A program made the position numbers and the translations under genes. 37,905 nucleotides of DNA from an uncultured Eubacteriales bacterium. Its GTDB lineage: Bacteria > Bacillota > Clostridia > Oscillospirales > Acutalibacteraceae. Numbering within the stretch: position 1 is the stretch's first letter; every line of letters starts with the position of its first letter. The stretch lies in contig CASFEZ010000022.1 in assembly GCA_949293815.1 (NCBI GenBank), positions 1 through 37,905 on the forward strand, written 5' to 3'. Below, one piece after another: positions 18,963 through 26,493 of the stretch. The notes under the pieces are model-generated. The model was not told where the DNA came from, searched no databases, and was given only the letters and a program-made list of their open reading frames with translations.

Positions 18963-19832
18963 ATGAGTGTCATCGTTAAAATTTTTTCCTTTTTCATTGC
19001 GCTGTTTTCCCTGTTTACTTCTCTGGTGAATGGGACATATCATCGGGAGGAAAGTACGATGGATGATTTTGAACTGGTTTGGTCGGATGAGTTTGACGGG
19101 GATACGCTGGATACAAGCAAATGGAGCACCCGGCAGGCAACCGAGATACGCCGCGGCGGATATTGGAACGGCGACTTACTGGAAGTGAAGGACGGCAATT
19201 TGGTCATTTACTCCAAATATCTCGAAAACGGCGTAGATGAAGGCGACCCCACCGGTTGGTATACAGCGCAGGTCAGCAGCCGAGGGCTTTATGAGCAGAC
19301 CTATGGCTATTTTGAAGTGCGCTGCATTTTGCCCGAGGGCTACGGCCAGTGGGCGGCGTTTTGGATGAACAGCCCCGCCATGGGGAATTCGACCTATATC
19401 GACAGCCGAAAAGGCGCGGAAATTGATATTTTTGAGTCAGCCTATTTCGGCACAGACAATCCGGATCGGGTAACCGGCGCTGTGCATTTCGGCGGCTATG
19501 GCAGCGCGCTGACTTCCATCTCCCCCATCTATACCGGTGGTGTACAGCCGGTGGATCCGTACCACAGCTTTAACACCTATGGGCTGGAGTGGAATGAAAG
19601 CGAATACATCTTCTATATCAACGGCGAGGTGGCAGCCAGAACCAACCGGTTCCAGGTTATGCCCTCCCAGACGCCGGAATATCTGATTCTTTCGGTGGAG
19701 ATGTCCGGCAGCGACGGTATTCCCTACAACAGCAGCGACAGCACCTGGGCGCCCGGCACCATGGAGGACAACGGCAGGGATTTTGTCAGCGAATTTGTCA
19801 TTGACTATGTGCGCTGCTACCAGTACAAATAA
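18963..19832 (+). CDS. GH16 family endo-beta-glucanase, copy 1
   Basis: 289 aa. GH16 retaining endo-glycosidase, probably acting on beta-1,3(-1,4)-glucan (laminarinase or lichenase type). The catalytic signature EIDIFE is at residues 153-158 (nucleophile E153, acid/base E158). ELVWSDEFDGDTLDTSKW, GYFEVRCILPEGYGQWAAFW and the closing FVIDYVRCYQYK are typical. Residues 4-24 form a hydrophobic N-terminal segment without a clear signal-peptidase site, so it may be anchored or atypically exported. No carbohydrate-binding or dockerin module. Its own promoter is at 18907-18935. A close paralogue follows 46 bases later. Exact substrate not determinable here. Confidence 0.92.
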   Translation: MSVIVKIFSFFIALFSLFTSLVNGTYHREESTMDDFELVWSDEFDGDTLDTSKWSTRQATEIRRGGYWNGDLLEVKDGNLVIYSKYLENGVDEGDPTGWYTAQVSSRGLYEQTYGYFEVRCILPEGYGQWAAFWMNSPAMGNSTYIDSRKGAEIDIFESAYFGTDNPDRVTGAVHFGGYGSALTSISPIYTGGVQPVDPYHSFNTYGLEWNESEYIFYINGEVAARTNRFQVMPSQTPEYLILSVEMSGSDGIPYNSSDSTWAPGTMEDNGRDFVSEFVIDYVRCYQYK

Positions 19833-19878
19833 AGTTACCGGTACAAATAAATAAATTTACAATAAGGAGGTCATGCGA

Positions 19879-20739
19879 ATGCAGGGGATTAACGGTATTC
19901 TTTCGTTTTTTATGGCGCTGATTTCTCTGTTCACCACCATCGTTAACGGTTCTCTGTTTAAACGGGAAATCGATTTGAACGACTTTGAGCTTGTCTGGGC
20001 GGATGAGTTTGACGGCGACAGCCTGGACAGAACAAAATGGAGCACCCAGGATACAACCGAGCTGCGGCGTGGCGGGTATTGGAACGGCGAAATGGTCGAG
20101 GTGCAGGACGGCAATTTGACCATTTATTCCAAGTATTTGGAAAACGGCATTGAAGGTGAGAATGTTCCCGGCTGGTATACCGCGCAGATCTCCACCCGCG
20201 ACCTGTACGAGCAGACCTACGGCTATTTTGAAGTGCGCTGCATTCTGCCGAAAGGGTATGGGCAATGGGCGGCGTTCTGGATGATTAACAGTTCCCTGCG
20301 GTATGAATATCCGGACGGCACCAAGGGCGCGGAAATTGATATCTTTGAATCCGCCTATTACGGCACCGACGACCCGAATCAGGTGACCAGCGCCGTACAT
20401 TGGGGCGGCTATGCGGATAAGCATGTCATTGCCTCGCCGATTTATACCGGGGTAAGACCTACTGACCCATACAACAGCTTTAACACCTATGGGCTTGAGT
20501 GGAACGAGCACGAGTATATCTTCTATATCAACGGTGAAGTTTACGCCAGAATGACCCGCTTCCAGGCGGCGCCTTCGCAAGAGCCGGAATATATGATTCT
20601 TTCCGTGGAGATGTCCGGCGCAAACGGTGTACCCGCCGATTTGGGCACCGGCTGGGCGCCCGGCAGTATAGAGGACAACGGCAGGGATTTTGTCAGCGAA
20701 TTTGTCATTGACTATGTGCGCTGCTATCAGTACAAATAA
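19879..20739 (+). CDS. GH16 family endo-beta-glucanase, copy 2
   Basis: 286 aa, closely similar along its whole length to the upstream GH16 protein and clearly a tandem duplicate. Catalytic EIDIFE at 152-157. Differences cluster in loops after the FWM strand (residues 137-150) and in the SPIYTG region, which may shift substrate range. The N-terminal hydrophobic segment (ILSFFMALISLFTTIVNG) has no basic residue in front of it, unusual for a signal peptide. The start at 19879 is 8 bases after AAGGAGG; the ATG at 19873 is too close to it. The ends of both genes share the same ~45-base sequence. It is closed by the terminator at 20754-20790. Confidence 0.92.
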   Translation: MQGINGILSFFMALISLFTTIVNGSLFKREIDLNDFELVWADEFDGDSLDRTKWSTQDTTELRRGGYWNGEMVEVQDGNLTIYSKYLENGIEGENVPGWYTAQISTRDLYEQTYGYFEVRCILPKGYGQWAAFWMINSSLRYEYPDGTKGAEIDIFESAYYGTDDPNQVTSAVHWGGYADKHVIASPIYTGVRPTDPYNSFNTYGLEWNEHEYIFYINGEVYARMTRFQAAPSQEPEYMILSVEMSGANGVPADLGTGWAPGSIEDNGRDFVSEFVIDYVRCYQYK

Positions 20740-20753
20740 GGCGATACGATAAT

Positions 20754-20790
20754 AAAAAAGCGAAGCGGTTGATTCCGGCTTCGCTTTTTT
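20754..20790. terminator. bidirectional intrinsic terminator
   Basis: 13-bp stem AAAAAAGCGAAGC (20754-20766) with GCTTCGCTTTTTT (20778-20790). It ends the GH16 pair (+) and the ECF operon (-). Confidence 0.9.
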
Positions 20791-20795
20791 GTTAT

Positions 20796-21524
20796 TCAAA
20801 TATCCGTTTTGTGCGCCGGTGAGGGAGGAGGCGGGGCGGCAATGTATTTGGTCTGCATACGGCGGATAATCCGGCACCAGGGACGGTATAGCAGGAGAAG
20901 AAACAGCACCGTTGAAAGCGCATGGATCAAAGAAAACGGCAGACCGGCGCCGTATGCCGCAAGAGCCGCCGCCGGTGTCAGCGGCGCAATAAAGCCCACC
21001 ACCGTCCAGCTGTCCATAATAAGCCCATACAGCAGGCTGAACAGTGCGCCCCAAACGGCGGCGGACAGCCTGCCCCGCAAAAGACCCCGCCGGGATAAAA
21101 CACCGCTGAGGTAGCCCACAAGCCCCCAGGCGAACATCTGCCAGGGCGTCCAGGCGCCCTGACCGAAAAACAGATTGGACGCCAGCGCCGCCAGCGCGCC
21201 GCAGAGAAAGCCCTGGTTTTTGCCTAAGGTCACCCCGGCAATGATCACAATGGCGGTTACCGGCTTAAAATTGGGAACGGCGGCGAACAAAACCCGACCG
21301 GCCGCCGCCGCTGCCGCCAGTATAATCAGCGGCATCAGCTGCGCCGCCGTAGGTCGTTCTGCCTCGAAGGTAAAAAAGAAGGGCACGCAGCTCAGCGAAA
21401 CACCCAGAAAGAGCAAAAGCGCCTTATATGGCGGATTCCTCCATGCGCACCACAATAACAGCAGCGGCAAAAACACCAGCGAAAGGGCGGCGAGCCCCTG
21501 CCAGAATCGATGGCTTTTACGCAA
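20796..21524 (-). CDS. ECF transporter S component, probably cobalamin-specific
   Basis: 242 aa, about six hydrophobic segments. This is the substrate-binding membrane subunit of an energy-coupling factor transporter. The block PNFKPVTAIVIIAG...GFLCGALAALASNLFFGQG followed by WTPWQMFAWGLVGYLSG is typical of ECF S components. The start is TTG at 21524, overlapping the EcfA stop by 8 bases, with GGAGG 9 bases upstream. It is the last gene of a five-gene operon under a cobalamin riboswitch, so vitamin B12 or a corrinoid precursor is the predicted ligand (CbrT-like role). The specificity comes from context, not from residues I can read. Confidence 0.85.
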   Translation of the reverse strand: MRKSHRFWQGLAALSLVFLPLLLLWCAWRNPPYKALLLFLGVSLSCVPFFFTFEAERPTAAQLMPLIILAAAAAAGRVLFAAVPNFKPVTAIVIIAGVTLGKNQGFLCGALAALASNLFFGQGAWTPWQMFAWGLVGYLSGVLSRRGLLRGRLSAAVWGALFSLLYGLIMDSWTVVGFIAPLTPAAALAAYGAGLPFSLIHALSTVLFLLLLYRPWCRIIRRMQTKYIAAPPPPSPAHKTDI

Positions 21525-23094
21525 GCGGCTCCACCTCCCTCGCCAAAACCGCAGGCTGCGGCAAAAGGCGGGTCATGCGGTATTCCGCTGTGGTAAAAAA
21601 GCGGTTCTCCAATAAAAACGCCCGGATATTCTGCTGGGGCAGCGTGTGACCGCCCGACAGCATGGTTACCGTATCCGCCGCCTCGGCGGCAAAGGTCAGG
21701 TCGTGGGTAATCAAGACAATGCCCTTTCCTGTTTCTGCCAATTGCCCCAGAAGACGCGCAAATTCGGCTTTGGCGCAGCTGTCCATACCGCCGGTCGGCT
21801 CATCCAGCAAAAGAAGATCCGGCGACGCCAAAAGCAGCTTGGCGATGGCAGCCTTCTGCAATTCGCCGCCGCTTAAATCGTAAGGGTGCCGCTGCTCATA
21901 CCCGGCAAGACCAAACTGCCCAAGCAGCGCCCGCGCATCCTGTTCGGTATAGCCGAAACGGTCGGACAGCTCCATCAGCTCCTCCAGCAAATGCGCGCCG
22001 CAAAACAACAGCCGGCAATCCTGCGGAAGAAGCGCGCTGCGCACGCCCTTTTCTTTTTTTACCTTTCCGTGTAAGGGACGCAGCACACCCGCCAGCAGCT
22101 GCAAAAGAGTGGACTTCCCCGCCCCGTTGCCGCCGACAATGGCGTGAATTTCCCCGGCGTAGATTGTCAAGCTTGCGTTTGCCACCGCCGGTTTTTCTGC
22201 GGAAGGATAGGCGAACCAGAGTTCCCTGCCCCGCATCAGCACGCGACCGGGGGTATGCACCGTACGCGGGCGCACAATCCATTTTTCCCCGGCAGTTTCC
22301 AAAAAACGCCTACCCTCGTTGACCGTCAGCGGATAGTCCCGCAAACCGGGCAATTTGGACGCAATTTGCGCCGCTGCGGGCAGTGAACCGCCGAGAGAGG
22401 GCTGGTGCTGAAAGATATGGCGGCAAAAATCCTGAGGCGCACCGTCGAAGGTCAGACGCCCTTCATCCAGACACAGTACCCGGTCGCAGTCGGGCAATAC
22501 CTGTTCGGTCAAATGCTCGCACAATAGAATCGTAATACCGGTTTCCCGATGAATGCGCCGCAGAACCGAAAGAAAATTTTCGGCGGCAATCGGGTCCAGA
22601 TGCGCCAAAGGCTCGTCCAGCAATAGCAGCTTCGGCGAAAGACAGAGCGCCGCGCAGAGATTACACAGCTGTTTCTGCCCGCCGGATAAATCCGTTGCCT
22701 TTTTTTCCAAAAGCGCTTCTATACCGAAATAACAGGCGGTTTCGGCGATACGGCGGTACAGGAACGCCGCGTCAAACCCGGCGTTTTCCAAGCCGAACGC
22801 CAGCTCCCGCTGGACAGTATCGGCAACCATCTGGTTTTCCGGCGACTGGGCGACATAGCCAATCGCGGAAAAATCATTGTCCGAAAGACCGTGAAAAACA
22901 ATCTCCCCCGTTCTGTCGCCCAAGGGGGCGATTTCCTTTTTCAGCAAGGACAGCAGCGTGGTCTTGCCGCTGCCGGACGCACCGAACAGCAGCACCAGTT
23001 CGCCCTCCTGTATGGCAAAATTCAAATCATGCAGTACCGCTTTCTCTGCGCCCGCATAGCAAAATGACAGGTGATTCACTTCGATAAACGCCAT
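21517..23094 (-). CDS. ECF transporter ATPase, fused EcfA-EcfA' (two ABC domains)
   Basis: 525 aa with two ABC ATPase domains in one chain. Domain 1: Walker A GASGSGKTT (38-46), signature LSGGQKQ, Walker B LLLLDEP. Domain 2 (about 285-500): GGNGAGKST, LSGGELQ, LLLLDEP and the switch histidine in ITHDL. The two usual separate subunits are fused. AGGAG lies 8 bases before the ATG at 23094, and the gene overlaps the end of the EcfT gene by 19 bases. It energises uptake by the S component encoded just downstream. Confidence 0.93.
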   Translation of the reverse strand: MAFIEVNHLSFCYAGAEKAVLHDLNFAIQEGELVLLFGASGSGKTTLLSLLKKEIAPLGDRTGEIVFHGLSDNDFSAIGYVAQSPENQMVADTVQRELAFGLENAGFDAAFLYRRIAETACYFGIEALLEKKATDLSGGQKQLCNLCAALCLSPKLLLLDEPLAHLDPIAAENFLSVLRRIHRETGITILLCEHLTEQVLPDCDRVLCLDEGRLTFDGAPQDFCRHIFQHQPSLGGSLPAAAQIASKLPGLRDYPLTVNEGRRFLETAGEKWIVRPRTVHTPGRVLMRGRELWFAYPSAEKPAVANASLTIYAGEIHAIVGGNGAGKSTLLQLLAGVLRPLHGKVKKEKGVRSALLPQDCRLLFCGAHLLEELMELSDRFGYTEQDARALLGQFGLAGYEQRHPYDLSGGELQKAAIAKLLLASPDLLLLDEPTGGMDSCAKAEFARLLGQLAETGKGIVLITHDLTFAAEAADTVTMLSGGHTLPQQNIRAFLLENRFFTTAEYRMTRLLPQPAVLAREVEPLA

Positions 23095-23936
23095 ACCAAG
23101 CGCTCCTTTCCCTCCGCCAGCACAGGCAGCAGCAGCAATAGCGCCATCCCCACTGCGGCAGGTACGCTCCATGGGGAGAGCCGCACATACGGGAAAAACA
23201 CAAAACTCCCCGCCGCGAAGAACAGCGCGGCTGTACAGGCAATCAAAACCGTTAAAAGCGCCGTTATCCCTTTGTCGGAAGCGGACATCGGCAGCTTTTT
23301 GTGGCGGCGCATGCCCCGTTTGTACCCGCGGGCATTCATGCTTTTGGCTGTTTGCGCGGAATCCTCCAGACTCTTTTCCAAAACGATGGTGGTGCTCCTG
23401 AGAGCACGGCGCAGGCTTTCCGATTTATTGCGTGTATCGCCGCAAAGGGCGGCACGCACCCGGTTCGCCTGCTCGCCGGTACGCAGCAGCGCGGGAATAT
23501 AACGCAAAATCAGCACCGCCGCCAGAGCGGTTGTCGGAAAAATGCCGGAGAATACCCCGAGAATTTTTTCACTGACCGCCATATCATTAAAATGCGCAAA
23601 CCAAACAAGCACCGCCGCCAAGGTCATGCCGGCGCTCAGACCGTACAGCGTCGCCTCGACCGTGACAGGTCGGTCGAAAACCGAAAACAATACCGTAAGT
23701 CCCCCGGTATTCACCAGCGGATTGACGATGGTCAAAAGCAAAATCACAGGCAAAGCAAGACCGACGGACGAGCGCAACGCCCGCCGGCCGGAGGATGCGG
23801 CGCGGCTCACAAGCGCACACAAAAGCCCAACAGCGGAAAAAATCGGACCGGTGGATGCCATGGAAAACAGCAGTACCGCCGCTGCGTATAACAAAACCGG
23901 CACATCGGCTCGCCGGTAAAAAAAGTTTTTAATCAC
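23076..23936 (-). CDS. ECF transporter transmembrane subunit EcfT
   Basis: 286 aa, several hydrophobic helices with an amphipathic coupling region between. It transmits ATP hydrolysis to the S component. SMNARGYKRG, near residue 208, carries the Ala-Arg-Gly coupling motif that docks in EcfA. The start is GTG at 23936, overlapping the DUF4430 stop codon as GTGA, with AAGGA upstream; this implies translational coupling. The frame is open to an ATG at 23975, which is less likely. Confidence 0.92.
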   Translation of the reverse strand: MIKNFFYRRADVPVLLYAAAVLLFSMASTGPIFSAVGLLCALVSRAASSGRRALRSSVGLALPVILLLTIVNPLVNTGGLTVLFSVFDRPVTVEATLYGLSAGMTLAAVLVWFAHFNDMAVSEKILGVFSGIFPTTALAAVLILRYIPALLRTGEQANRVRAALCGDTRNKSESLRRALRSTTIVLEKSLEDSAQTAKSMNARGYKRGMRRHKKLPMSASDKGITALLTVLIACTAALFFAAGSFVFFPYVRLSPWSVPAAVGMALLLLLPVLAEGKERLVWRLSK

Positions 23937-24640
23937 GAAGCAACATCCTTGCCGCCGTCGAGCGTATAAACCCATTCCACGCTGTCGCCGTCCTTTAGCT
24001 CACAAGTCGAGCAGGACGCCTGTACCTGCTCGCCGTTGACCAGATAAATCCATCCGCTCATACTCCCCACTGCGCGTTCCGCAAGGGACTGGATGCTGTA
24101 AACATAACTGCCGTAGCCGCTGCGGCGAACCCCTAAAACCAAATCGGTTCGCTCCAGCACATCCAATACGGTATCACCATCGGTAATTGTCATATCTGTC
24201 GGCGCAAGCATCCAGCCATCGGGCGCTACGGCAGCTGCCACCTCGCTGCCCGCATCGACGGCGGTTTGGCAGCGAACAGAAAGGGTTACCTGCATGGCAT
24301 TTGTCTGCAATGGCTGCGACGGCGCAGCCGTTTGCTGCGGCTGCGTAAGCGGCGCTTCGGTACGAGCAGCTGTATGGGTTGTTTCCGTCCGCGTTGTATT
24401 CACGGCTTGCGTTTCCGCAGATGAAGTGGTGTCCGTCTGTGTCTCGGCGGCAGTTTGCGTATTCTCCGCCGAAGATTCCACTCGCTCACCTGCCGCTGTT
24501 ATTGCCGCTTCGGTTGTCGTACCTGTTTCCGTTTTCTGCGTTGTGCCGTTTTCAGCAGTGGAACCCGGCATCTGACAGGCAGAAAAACAGATCAAGGCAA
24601 ATAAAATGCTCGCCATTAAAACGGGTAAAAATTTTTTCAT
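23933..24640 (-). CDS. DUF4430 lipoprotein (transcobalamin-like C-terminal domain)
   Basis: 235 aa. Lipoprotein signal with a probable lipidated C22 (LICFSAC). A Thr/Glu/Ala/Gln-rich linker (about 25-110) follows, suited to reach through the cell wall. Residues about 120-230 form the DUF4430 domain (TDGDTVLDVLERT, GSYVYSIQSLAERAVGSMSGWIYLVNGE, LKDGDSVEWVYT). DUF4430 is related to the C-terminal beta domain of vertebrate intrinsic factor/transcobalamin. It lies between a secreted propeller gene and ecfT, overlapping the latter by 4 bases. In a cobalamin-riboswitch operon it is a strong candidate for surface B12 capture or hand-off (inference). Confidence 0.87.
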   Translation of the reverse strand: MKKFLPVLMASILFALICFSACQMPGSTAENGTTQKTETGTTTEAAITAAGERVESSAENTQTAAETQTDTTSSAETQAVNTTRTETTHTAARTEAPLTQPQQTAAPSQPLQTNAMQVTLSVRCQTAVDAGSEVAAAVAPDGWMLAPTDMTITDGDTVLDVLERTDLVLGVRRSGYGSYVYSIQSLAERAVGSMSGWIYLVNGEQVQASCSTCELKDGDSVEWVYTLDGGKDVAS

Positions 24641-24668
24641 ATCGGTCTTCCTTTATGCTGACAATCCC

Positions 24669-26141
24669 TTAGCTTTCCAAGCCGACCGCGATACGCAATA
24701 CCGCGCGGGCATCGGATGTGGTAATTGTACCGCTGTTATCCATATCGCCGGCTGTCAGCGCCTGTTCGGTCAGCTCGTCCAGCCCGACTGCCATGCGCAG
24801 CAATAACCGCGCATCCGCCGTGGTGACCTTGCCGTCGCCGTTGATATCGCCTGCAAGCAGCACCTCTTCGGCATCGCTCAGAGCAAACAAGGTGCCGGAA
24901 TCGTTCCAATAATAAATCACGCCGTTATCATCGCAAATGGGCGATGTCAGACAGTAGTTTTGTGCGCTCGCCTGCGGGGTAAACGCGGTGACAATCTCCC
25001 CGTCCGTCAGGCAGTACAGCACCCCCGGATAAGCGTTGCAGGTAAAATAAGCATTTGTGCTGTTTTCCCCGCCGGAAAGCAGCGGAGAGGCTTTGACCTC
25101 GGCGGGGGTTTCCCATTTCTGCTCTACGGTCATTTTGTCCACATCAATCACAGCAAGAACGCCTTTGGCGGGATTTGACCAATCGACCGATTCTTCCCAA
25201 AGACCGCCCACATAGGCTTTGCCATCGTAGACAGCGGCAGTGGAAGTAGAGGAATAGGCAAAGTTAACCGAGCCGGTTACGGCAATTGTCCCATCATCGC
25301 CAACGGCAAATTGATGCAGCGTGCCATCGCTTGAAACGGCATAATAATAGCCATCCGCAAAACTGATCGCTGCATTGACCGAAGCAGAAAGGCTCTGCTC
25401 GGCAAGCAGGGCACCGGAAACCGCATCCAGCACGCGAACGCAGCCGTCGGAACCGGCGATCACGGCTTTTCCGTCGCGCACCACAGCGCCGCTCCAGTTA
25501 TAGCCGCCCGATGTGTTGTCATACTGCCAGCGGACGTCACCGGTGGCAACATCGATACAAAGCACCTCGCCGCGAACGGCAGCATAGGTAGAAACATCAA
25601 AGCACACCGTCGGCACATACAGCGCCTCGCCATCATAGGCTATGGCGCTCTGGATACTGTGGTACTGGGTATTGCCGCCCTCGTCGGTGGTCAGTACCGG
25701 CTGGGTCTGCCAAACCGTTTCACCGGTTGCGAGGTCAATGGTCTGTATGGAAGCGTCAGAAAGCGGCACAATCACAAAGTCCCCCGCAAGGCGGATGCGG
25801 CAATTGTACCCTATGGCGGACGATAGCGCCAGCCGGCGCACCTCCTGCCCCTCGGCGTCTAAAAATACCAGCGAATCCCCCACGGCTACGCAAATATTGC
25901 CCTGATATATCAGGGGTTCCGACAGATTGGTATTCCAGTCATCCGCCGCCTTCAGCTGGGCGGTATACACCGGCGACAAGGAAACCGGCAACGCCGTTTC
26001 CACGACCGCTACATTGGTTTCGCTGTTTCGGAAAGATTCCCAATTTCCGCCGGTTTCTGCCGCGCCGGAAACCGCCATGGAAAAGATAAGACATACGGTC
26101 AGCAAAGCGGCAAGCACCGTTTTCTTTTTTGTTCTGTACAT
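24669..26141 (-). CDS. secreted PQQ-type beta-propeller with C-terminal dockerin
   Basis: 490 aa. Signal peptide at about 1-30 (MYRTKKKTVLAALL...VSGAAE). About 400 residues of repeated beta-propeller blades of the PQQ/WD-like type follow (repeats of DGKAYVGG, DGEALYVPT and similar, with GxVxWQYD). The end (about 430-490) is a type I dockerin with two calcium loops, DINGDGKVTTAD and DMDNSGTITTSD. The start at 26141 is 8 bases after GGAGG; the longer frame to 26375 runs into the riboswitch. First gene of the ECF operon. Predicted extracellular and possibly held by a cohesin. A B12-binding role like that of the Bacteroides propeller BtuG is a hypothesis. Confidence 0.85.
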   Translation of the reverse strand: MYRTKKKTVLAALLTVCLIFSMAVSGAAETGGNWESFRNSETNVAVVETALPVSLSPVYTAQLKAADDWNTNLSEPLIYQGNICVAVGDSLVFLDAEGQEVRRLALSSAIGYNCRIRLAGDFVIVPLSDASIQTIDLATGETVWQTQPVLTTDEGGNTQYHSIQSAIAYDGEALYVPTVCFDVSTYAAVRGEVLCIDVATGDVRWQYDNTSGGYNWSGAVVRDGKAVIAGSDGCVRVLDAVSGALLAEQSLSASVNAAISFADGYYYAVSSDGTLHQFAVGDDGTIAVTGSVNFAYSSTSTAAVYDGKAYVGGLWEESVDWSNPAKGVLAVIDVDKMTVEQKWETPAEVKASPLLSGGENSTNAYFTCNAYPGVLYCLTDGEIVTAFTPQASAQNYCLTSPICDDNGVIYYWNDSGTLFALSDAEEVLLAGDINGDGKVTTADARLLLRMAVGLDELTEQALTAGDMDNSGTITTSDARAVLRIAVGLES

Positions 26142-26172
26142 AAGAACAACCTCCGTTTTTTGTATTTCAAAT

Positions 26173-26206
26173 AAAAAAACCGGCGCGGAGCAGTCCGTAG
26201 CCGATT
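26173..26206 (-). terminator. riboswitch expression-platform terminator
   Basis: Minus strand hairpin with stem AATCGGC/GCCGGTT and inner GGA/TCC, followed by a seven-base T run. It lies between the aptamer and the start codon at 26141, as expected for B12-controlled termination. A second palindrome, AACGGAA/TTCCGTT (26224-26239), with its own T run, lies just upstream and may be an alternative structure. Confidence 0.75.
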
Positions 26207-26299
26207 TTTTTTGCAACACAAAAAACGGAAGTTTCCGTTCCTTTTGTTCTATCAGCGGCGGCGGCGTTTCCATTTGCCCAAAACACCGTTCACTCGAAA

Positions 26300-26475
26300 A
26301 ATACGGCAGGTCTCCCGGCTTGCGCTCGCATGCTGCGGCATGCCGACTCGGACGCCTTCTCGGAAAAACTTCCAATGGCAGATTGTCCGTCTCTAAAAAC
26401 GCCTACGGTAATGGCTGTTGCTGCGGATTTCGACCGCATTCCCTTTTCACGAAAGCTTCCTTTCGCACCGTATTT
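26300..26475 (-). promoter_or_regulatory. cobalamin (AdoCbl/B12) riboswitch aptamer
   Basis: On the minus strand the closing stem AATACGG/CCGTATT joins the two ends. The order of conserved blocks matches the cobalamin class: GGTGCGAAAGG, GGGAATGCGGTC, AAATCCGCAGCAACAGCC, TACCGTAGGCG, CTGCCATTGG, GAGAAGGCG, CCGAGTCGGC, and the B12 box AAGCCGGGAGACCTGCCG. It precedes the propeller-DUF4430-ECF operon and should switch it off when B12 is abundant. Confidence 0.93.
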
Positions 26476-26493
26476 TCCCGATATTTCTATTTG

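What the first reader, a model, noticed from the sequence alone, without database searches (positions are those of the whole stretch)
20796..26475. Cobalamin-riboswitch operon coding for an extracellular capture pair plus ECF importer
A clear B12 riboswitch leads a tight five-gene operon: secreted PQQ-type propeller with dockerin, DUF4430 lipoprotein, EcfT, fused EcfA-EcfA', S component. DUF4430 is related to the beta domain of intrinsic factor/transcobalamin, and a beta-propeller (BtuG) captures B12 on Bacteroides cells. I infer a Gram-positive B12 scavenging system in which a cell-wall or scaffold-held propeller and a transcobalamin-like lipoprotein pass corrinoid to an ECF transporter. The genes and riboswitch are visible; the binding roles are not demonstrated.
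Basis: partly seen in the sequence, partly recalled or inferred. Interest (0 to 1): 0.85.

Follow-up and report, generated by a model that had tools for sequence, protein, structure and literature searches.

The report
Gram-positive vitamin B12 scavenging operon
A bacterium that appears unable to make vitamin B12 carries, under its only detected B12-sensing RNA switch, an operon for a B12-type importer plus two exported proteins, one of them related to the animal B12-carrier proteins, which probably catch the vitamin outside the cell; no binding has been measured.

Summary
A full-length cobalamin riboswitch (RF00174, 97.7 bits, the only hit in the genome) leads propeller-dockerin, DUF4430 lipoprotein, EcfT, fused EcfA-A' and S component. 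The S component's only credible solved relative is CbrT, a proven B12 transporter subunit; the DUF4430 profile reaches transcobalamin. CbiC, CobS, two adenosyltransferase families and MetE were found in 0 of 7 genomes of the genus, a MetH-like enzyme is present, so cobamide import looks obligatory. The association recurs: 50 of 74 riboswitch hits in 98 genomes have DUF4430 downstream; 73 of 80 propeller loci carry same-strand DUF4430, 37 in one polypeptide. The propeller stands where many sister operons have an alpha/alpha-toroid, transcobalamin's other half; 0 of 74 riboswitch operons hold both, but 9 of 80 propeller loci do. B12 scavenging by such SLBB/ECF operons was predicted in 2007 (PMC1796856). 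Added here: riboswitch and CbrT links, a free dockerin-bearing propeller, toroid/propeller exchange. The propeller is BamB-like; BtuG is absent from the 50 listed fold matches. Corrinoid binding by either exported protein is undemonstrated.

The parts
26288..26487 (-). Cobalamin riboswitch aptamer (RF00174)
   Evidence: 97.7 bits, full length; only hit in the genome
26142..26287 (-). Leader between aptamer and first start codon; predicted hairpin that pairs the ribosome-binding sequence, with a terminator-like hairpin inside (read from the sequence)
   Evidence: RNA fold of 26290-26142: -59 kcal/mol, z -6.2 against 200 shuffles, 0 fold as well; reading it as the expression platform is inference
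24669..26141 (-). Exported PQQ-type beta-propeller with C-terminal dockerin, 490 aa
   Evidence: PQQ_2 4e-16, Dockerin_1 1e-7; AlphaFold mean pLDDT 88, ten-residue blocks over residues 41-420 at 88 or more; BamB-type fold
24699..24854 (-). Type I dockerin domain (residues 430-481)
   Evidence: Pfam PF00404; cohesin PF00963, 3 matches in the own genome
23933..24640 (-). Lipoprotein with low-complexity linker and C-terminal DUF4430 (transcobalamin-like beta-grasp) domain, 235 aa
   Evidence: PF14478 7e-13, residues 155-226; profile hits 3u7z 7e-15 and transcobalamin-1 6e-4; lipobox-like LICFSAC read from the translation
23076..23936 (-). EcfT membrane subunit (probable GTG start)
   Evidence: family profile hits solved EcfT, best 6e-12; CbiQ in 6 of 9 relatives
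21517..23094 (-). Fused EcfA-EcfA' ATPase
   Evidence: two ABC_tran stretches; ECF ATPase models 1e-81 and 7e-79, both below their whole-protein cut-offs
20796..21524 (-). S component of CbrT type
   Evidence: phmmer to 6FNP chain A 8e-10, family profile 7e-31
20754..20790 (-). Probable operon terminator: inverted repeat followed by a T run
   Evidence: read from the sequence; not in the list of the terminator scan, whose loop limit is 8

Best explanation
This is a cobamide-repressed scavenging operon of a B12-auxotrophic clostridium. When intracellular cobamide is low the riboswitch lets the operon be expressed. A secreted beta-propeller, held outside the cell through its dockerin, and a membrane-anchored DUF4430 lipoprotein with the fold of the beta half of transcobalamin capture cobamide together; the lipoprotein passes it to a CbrT-type S component, and the dedicated EcfT-EcfAA' motor imports it, chiefly for a MetH-like methionine synthase. 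Shown by computation: riboswitch, gene families, recurring association, synthesis genes not found. Inferred: repression by cobamide, corrinoid binding by the two exported proteins, hand-over to the transporter. In my estimate, import of B12 or a close cobamide has probability about 0.93, DUF4430 touching corrinoid about 0.75, the propeller touching corrinoid about 0.5.
For: Riboswitch. S component related to CbrT, whose complex was shown by others to import cobalamin and cobinamide (passages of PMC5997447). DUF4430 profile reaches transcobalamin-1 6e-4, transcobalamin-2 0.04, intrinsic factor 0.5. In 7 genomes of the genus, the own one included: CbiC 0 of 7, CobS 0 of 7, adenosyltransferase families PF01923 and PF02572 0 of 7 each, MetE domain PF01717 0 of 7, B12-binding domain 7 of 7 with one match in the own genome, there in a MetH-like frame (371 bits, below the metH cut-off of 1011, sequence cut at the locus edge). 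Of 74 RF00174 hits in 60 of 98 genomes (own plus 97 relatives), 50 (46 genomes) have DUF4430 on the same strand within 6.5 kb downstream, against about 0.002 expected per hit; 1 of 74 has one upstream or on the other strand. Of 80 propeller loci (best 80 of 157, found with a propeller-only query), 73 have same-strand DUF4430, 37 in one polypeptide, 39 have all five genes; 46 of 80 have a riboswitch-model hit at E up to 1e-3, all 46 on the propeller's strand. 18 of 74 riboswitch hits lead a short DUF4430 gene plus a CbrT-like S gene without motor genes, which ties DUF4430 to the S component. Within the genus, G000, G001 and G004 have the propeller form and G005 the toroid form.
Against: No binding or transport data for this operon. 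ECF-CbrT of Lactobacillus works without extracellular partners in proteoliposomes (PMC5997447), and one riboswitch-led ECF-CbrT operon here has no DUF4430, propeller or toroid (G012:C107, L114). Two genomes of the same genus (G006, G002) carry DUF4430-EcfT-EcfAA'-S with no propeller, toroid or riboswitch hit in the DNA held (L131, L132; L132 begins near the contig end), so neither switch nor capture partner is invariable even in the genus. 24 of 74 riboswitch hits have no Pfam-detected DUF4430 downstream, and 63 of 114 DUF4430 matches are not under a detected switch. 7 of 80 propeller loci show no DUF4430, some of them short. The propeller resembles BamB rather than BtuG. No adenosyltransferase was found, so what the riboswitch senses is unclear. 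Absences are in draft genomes (own 96 percent complete).
Confidence: 0.8

Rival explanations
1. The importer takes up B12, but the propeller does not touch the ligand: it is an anchor or adhesion module that positions the DUF4430 protein on the wall, on glycan or on a scaffoldin.
For: Burroughs et al. 2007 proposed tethering for the extra domains (passages). The propeller carries a dockerin here; tails in the 80 named loci, counted per propeller-positive reading frame (81): 5 dockerin, 12 sortase-like motif plus hydrophobic stretch, 30 hydrophobic stretch only, 32 neither, 2 cut (rules of my own). BamB, a structural propeller, is among its nearest folds.
Against: The propeller appears where sister operons have the toroid, which in transcobalamin contacts B12: 11 propeller, 7 toroid, 1 neither, 0 both among 19 distinct riboswitch-led DUF4430-ECF operons; 7 more such operons without an Rfam hit, picked by me, add 4 toroid, 3 neither, 0 propeller. 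Tails differ while the propeller core keeps 14 invariant positions across 28 sequences, so the core is not just an anchor.
Confidence: 0.35
2. The substrate is a B12 precursor or fragment (cobinamide, lower-ligand base) rather than complete cobamides.
For: CbrT also carries cobinamide (PMC5997447); the 2007 paper allowed for precursors.
Against: CobS, a late assembly step, was found in 0 of 7 genomes of the genus, so cobinamide could not be completed by the known route.
Confidence: 0.08
3. It is a cobalt, riboflavin or other metal/vitamin ECF importer that has a B12 switch by accident.
For: Pfam calls the S component DUF6580 or ECF-ribofla_trS; 3u7z is named a putative metal binding protein; a cobalt ECF importer is under a cobalamin riboswitch in C. 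difficile (PMC11477304 passages).
Against: The only credible solved relative of the S component is CbrT; CbrT-like S genes recur under cobalamin riboswitches; with no corrin-ring gene CbiC found a cobalt importer for B12 would have little use.
Confidence: 0.03

Closest known systems
Transcobalamin-like SLBB proteins encoded with CbiO/CbiQ genes (Burroughs et al. 2007, PMC1796856; passages seen)
   Same: Extracellular DUF4430/SLBB domain beside an ABC ATPase and a CbiQ-like membrane protein, in bacteria that usually lack B12 synthesis genes; toroid fusions and a beta-propeller fusion were reported; B12 scavenging was predicted.
   Different: The word riboswitch does not occur in the held text; no CbrT link (the CbrT paper is of 2018); the propeller there is a fusion, here a free dockerin-bearing protein.
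ECF-CbrT of Lactobacillus delbrueckii (PMC5997447, 6FNP; passages seen)
   Same: CbrT-type S component with EcfT and two ATPase domains.
   Different: Here the two ATPase domains are one polypeptide, motor and S gene sit in one operon, and two exported proteins are added.
BtuG/BtuB of Bacteroides (PMC10404256 passages; PMC6143338 search listing only)
   Same: A surface beta-propeller encoded with a B12 importer.
   Different: BtuG2 is a 7-bladed lid on an outer-membrane transporter; this propeller is BamB/PQQ-like, from a clostridium, and no BtuG is among the 50 fold matches listed.
Animal transcobalamin, haptocorrin and intrinsic factor
   Same: DUF4430 corresponds to their beta domain; many sister operons also carry a toroid.
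   Different: No toroid in this operon; a propeller stands in its place.

Membership tests
Cobalamin riboswitch (RF00174) | Covariance-model score above the curated threshold, full length | tested here: met
   97.7 bits, 1-189 of 189
Cobalamin riboswitch (RF00174) | Ligand-dependent control of the downstream genes | not testable with these tools
   leader fold suggests occlusion of the ribosome-binding sequence; no expression data
CbrT-type ECF transporter | S component homologous to CbrT | tested here: met
   8e-10 single sequence, 7e-31 profile
CbrT-type ECF transporter | EcfT and two ATPase domains | tested here: met
CbrT-type ECF transporter | Transport of cobalamin | not testable with these tools
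   needs an experiment
[quoted passage not shown]
   PF14478 above cut-off; transcobalamin-1 6e-4 with the family profile
Transcobalamin-like SLBB (DUF4430) | Binding of corrinoid | not testable with these tools
   contact residues were not mapped
Transcobalamin proper (toroid plus beta domain) | Alpha/alpha toroid in the same protein or operon | tested here: not met
   no toroid-profile hit in the window operon
BtuG | BtuG-like 7-bladed propeller as nearest structural relative | tested here: not met
   none in the 50 rows listed; later rows not shown
PQQ-dependent dehydrogenase | Match above the curated score of a PQQ enzyme model | tested here: not met
   27.5 bits against a cut-off of 480
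Cellulosome-type dockerin protein | Type I dockerin, and a cohesin in the genome | tested here: met
   Dockerin_1 32.4 bits; 3 cohesin matches in the own genome; pairing between them not tested

The most novel reading that the evidence does not exclude
The propeller and the DUF4430 domain close around one corrinoid as a two-part clamp, a non-homologous replacement of the toroid half of the transcobalamin sandwich by a beta-propeller, deployed at a distance on a cohesin scaffold and emptied into a dedicated ECF-CbrT motor.
Probability: 0.35. Interest if true: 0.78.

Novelty: new variant of a known kind. Interest (0 to 1): 0.6.

Why it matters
How Gram-positive gut bacteria catch B12 outside the membrane is poorly known; a 2020 review says that at least some use variations of the known machinery (PMC6977713, passages). 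The operon gives a concrete, testable parts list, found in Clostridia and, by the same profiles, in Coriobacteriia such as Collinsella, Eggerthella and Olsenella. It would also show that one B12-binding half, the one shared with animal B12 carriers, can work with two unrelated partner folds. It gives a likely function to bacterial DUF4430, a name found in 6 papers of the held library.

Tried and rejected
BtuG homology: rejected as fold-specific kinship (50 rows seen). Riboflavin substrate suggested by Pfam names: rejected by the CbrT match. Strict mutual exclusion of toroid and propeller: 0 of 74 riboswitch hits lead both, but 9 of 80 propeller loci also hold a toroid hit, so it is no rule. 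The chance figure for it (0.00016 on 19 distinct operons) treats operons as independent, which related genomes are not, and a further 7 operons without an Rfam hit include 3 with neither fold. "Slot" is loose: the toroid is fused to DUF4430 or precedes it in most, but follows it in G040:C72 and G055:C46, and in G009 and several named loci DUF4430 comes last behind propeller and motor genes. Toroid calls: of 10 proteins with a toroid-family Pfam hit at E up to 0.01, 3 reach the curated cut-off (L069, L071, L075) and 7 do not; the L074 and L084 proteins gave no Pfam toroid hit and are toroid by my own profile only.

Limits of the counts. The profiles for DUF4430, propeller, S, T, A and toroid were built from members of the sets they were then counted on; the Pfam and Rfam searches were not. 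The riboswitch model R1 was trained on sequences that include at least 3 of the 46 positive loci (L138, L139, L143). Rfam itself, run on 8 of the 80 loci, found a cobalamin-class riboswitch in 6 (5 RF00174, 1 AdoCbl-II) and none in L164 and L182. Four of the 74 riboswitch hits are below the gathering score, and the 98-genome scan used stricter filters that lose weak matches: on 9 DUF4430 regions where it saw none, R1 found a hit in 3. G092:C34 counts twice in the 74 because it has two riboswitch hits. Of the 63 DUF4430 matches not under a detected switch only those in these 9 regions were looked at. An EcfT query was cut in the wrong frame and found nothing; the later EcfT profile used the right frame. 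The coordinates of the model of a natural DUF4430-propeller fusion are not readable here, so docking of the two domains could not be judged; its fold search showed propeller proteins in the 50 rows listed. Searches for prior work.
Full report
The observation. On the minus strand the window holds a complete cobalamin riboswitch (26487-26288, 97.7 bits) followed by five tightly packed genes. Pfam gives a PQQ_2 propeller with Dockerin_1, a DUF4430 protein, a polypeptide with two ABC_tran stretches and an S component. The remaining membrane protein has no Pfam hit on its own, but a profile of nine operon relatives finds solved EcfT chains (best 6e-12), and 6 of the 9 hit CbiQ. A whole-genome search finds no other RF00174 hit. 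The leader between aptamer and first start codon folds unusually well (z -6.2), with the ribosome-binding sequence paired in the predicted hairpin; that this is the switching part is inference.

What is imported. The S component has one credible relative among solved chains, chain A of 6FNP (8e-10 alone, 7e-31 with a 15-member profile). 6FNP is ECF-CbrT, which imports cobalamin and cobinamide, and hemin did not compete (passages of PMC5997447). The genus, 7 genomes with the own one, shows no CbiC, CobS, PF01923 or PF02572 adenosyltransferase or MetE domain PF01717, each search ringing in some of 14 control genomes; a B12-binding domain is present in 7 of 7, in the own genome in a MetH-like frame (below the model's cut-off on a cut sequence). 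The likeliest reading is an organism that must import finished cobamides for methionine synthesis. Draft genomes limit the force of absences.

The DUF4430 protein. It looks like a lipoprotein with a long low-complexity linker. A 19-member profile reaches the bacterial DUF4430 structure 3u7z (7e-15), then transcobalamin-1 (6e-4), transcobalamin-2 (0.04) and intrinsic factor (0.5). Kinship to the beta half of the animal B12 carriers is supported by sequence; the window protein alone reaches 3u7z only at 0.13.

Recurrence under the switch. In 98 genomes (own plus 97 relatives), DUF4430 was found in 76 and RF00174 in 60 (58 over the cut-off). Of 74 riboswitch hits, 50 in 46 genomes have a DUF4430 match on the same strand within 6.5 kb downstream; about 0.002 per hit is expected by chance, and 1 of 74 has one upstream or on the other strand. 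Of the 114 DUF4430 matches, 51 lie under such a riboswitch and 63 do not. Sorting all 74 with profiles: 11 propeller-DUF4430-ECF-S; 8 toroid-DUF4430-ECF (one operon counted twice); 6 toroid-DUF4430 without ECF genes in the DNA held; 18 short DUF4430 plus CbrT-like S without motor genes; 1 DUF4430-ECF-S with neither fold; 7 DUF4430 alone; 23 without DUF4430 on that strand, among them 2 with a toroid, one ECF-CbrT operon with no exported partner (G012:C107), and one where the propeller is led by the switch while DUF4430 and ECF genes run the other way (G044). None of the 74 has both toroid and propeller. Nine regions around DUF4430 matches without an Rfam hit were also sorted: 7 have EcfT, EcfAA' and S, an eighth S alone; 5 have a toroid, none a propeller; the session's own riboswitch model finds a switch in 3. 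Two of the nine are from the genus itself (G006, G002) and show neither switch nor capture partner.

Second entry point, the propeller. A scan of named genomes with a propeller-only query gave 80 loci (best 80 of 157), in Clostridia and Coriobacteriia. 73 of 80 carry DUF4430 on the same strand, 37 of them in the same polypeptide: 31 with DUF4430 only before the propeller, 3 only after, 3 on both sides. 39 hold all five genes. A riboswitch model trained on 26 sequences hits 46 of 80 loci at E up to 1e-3, all on the propeller's strand. Rfam on 8 of these loci found a cobalamin-class switch in 6, one being AdoCbl-II. Toroid hits occur in 9 of 80 loci, so propeller and toroid are usual alternatives, not strict ones.

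How it probably works. Many sister operons place a toroid (transcobalamin's alpha half by fold family) with DUF4430; this branch places a propeller there, and both forms occur in the one genus (propeller in G000, G001, G004; toroid in G005). Because transcobalamin sandwiches B12 between toroid and beta domain (PMC1796856 passages), the simplest reading is that the propeller does the toroid's job. That step is inferred. Anchoring varies: dockerin in the window and 5 of the named loci, sortase-like or hydrophobic tails in others, none seen in many (rules of my own). Cohesin matches exist in the genome (3), so a scaffold-held capture protein is possible. The predicted propeller is confident over the blades and nearest to designed propellers, BamB and PQQ enzymes; BtuG is not among the 50 matches listed.

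What is known. Burroughs et al. 2007 (passages) already proposed that SLBB proteins of the transcobalamin clade, encoded with CbiO and CbiQ genes in bacteria that usually lack B12 synthesis, scavenge B12, and listed toroid and beta-propeller fusions. The term riboswitch does not occur in the held text. In the held library DUF4430 occurs in 6 papers (one seen as a passage, the rest as listings), and I saw no experimental work on a bacterial one as B12 binder in the listings; most subscription journals are not held. The finding is therefore a new variant of a predicted kind, with stronger evidence than the passages of the prediction that I saw.

Noticed in passing
G012:C107 (L114:2520-7768, minus strand): A cobalamin riboswitch leads EcfT, EcfAA' and a CbrT-like S gene with no DUF4430, propeller or toroid hit, so the transporter also occurs bare.
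   Followed up: partly
L079, L081, L082, L087 and 14 more of the 74 riboswitch loci: A short DUF4430 gene plus a CbrT-like S gene without motor genes; the solved protein 3u7z (RUMGNA_00854) resembles this short kind in the profile alignment.
   Followed up: partly
own genus, 7 genomes: Neither adenosyltransferase family tested (PF01923, PF02572) was found although the operon's switch is of the main cobalamin class; what it senses in such cells is unexplained.
   Followed up: no
L131 and L132 (G006, G002, same genus): DUF4430-EcfT-EcfAA'-S operons, S and ATPase in one long frame, with no riboswitch, propeller or toroid hit in the DNA held.
   Followed up: partly
L174:6528-6604: The propeller operon of Slackia piriformis is led by an AdoCbl-II riboswitch (RF01689, 37.4 bits, just over the cut-off) instead of RF00174.
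   Followed up: no
L182:14732-14986: raiA RNA (RF03072, 172 bits) lies downstream of the propeller operon in an Atopobium genome.
   Followed up: no
window 18963-19832 and 19873-20739, plus strand: Two adjacent similar glycoside hydrolase 16 like genes end beside the B12 operon (first one Pfam-tested; second by similarity of the translation).
   Followed up: no
L073:7741-10389 and L122:4567-8019, minus strand: Toroid-type proteins with a dockerin match (L122 over the cut-off, L073 below it, with a weak cohesin match), so dockerin tethering may go with both partner folds.
   Followed up: partly
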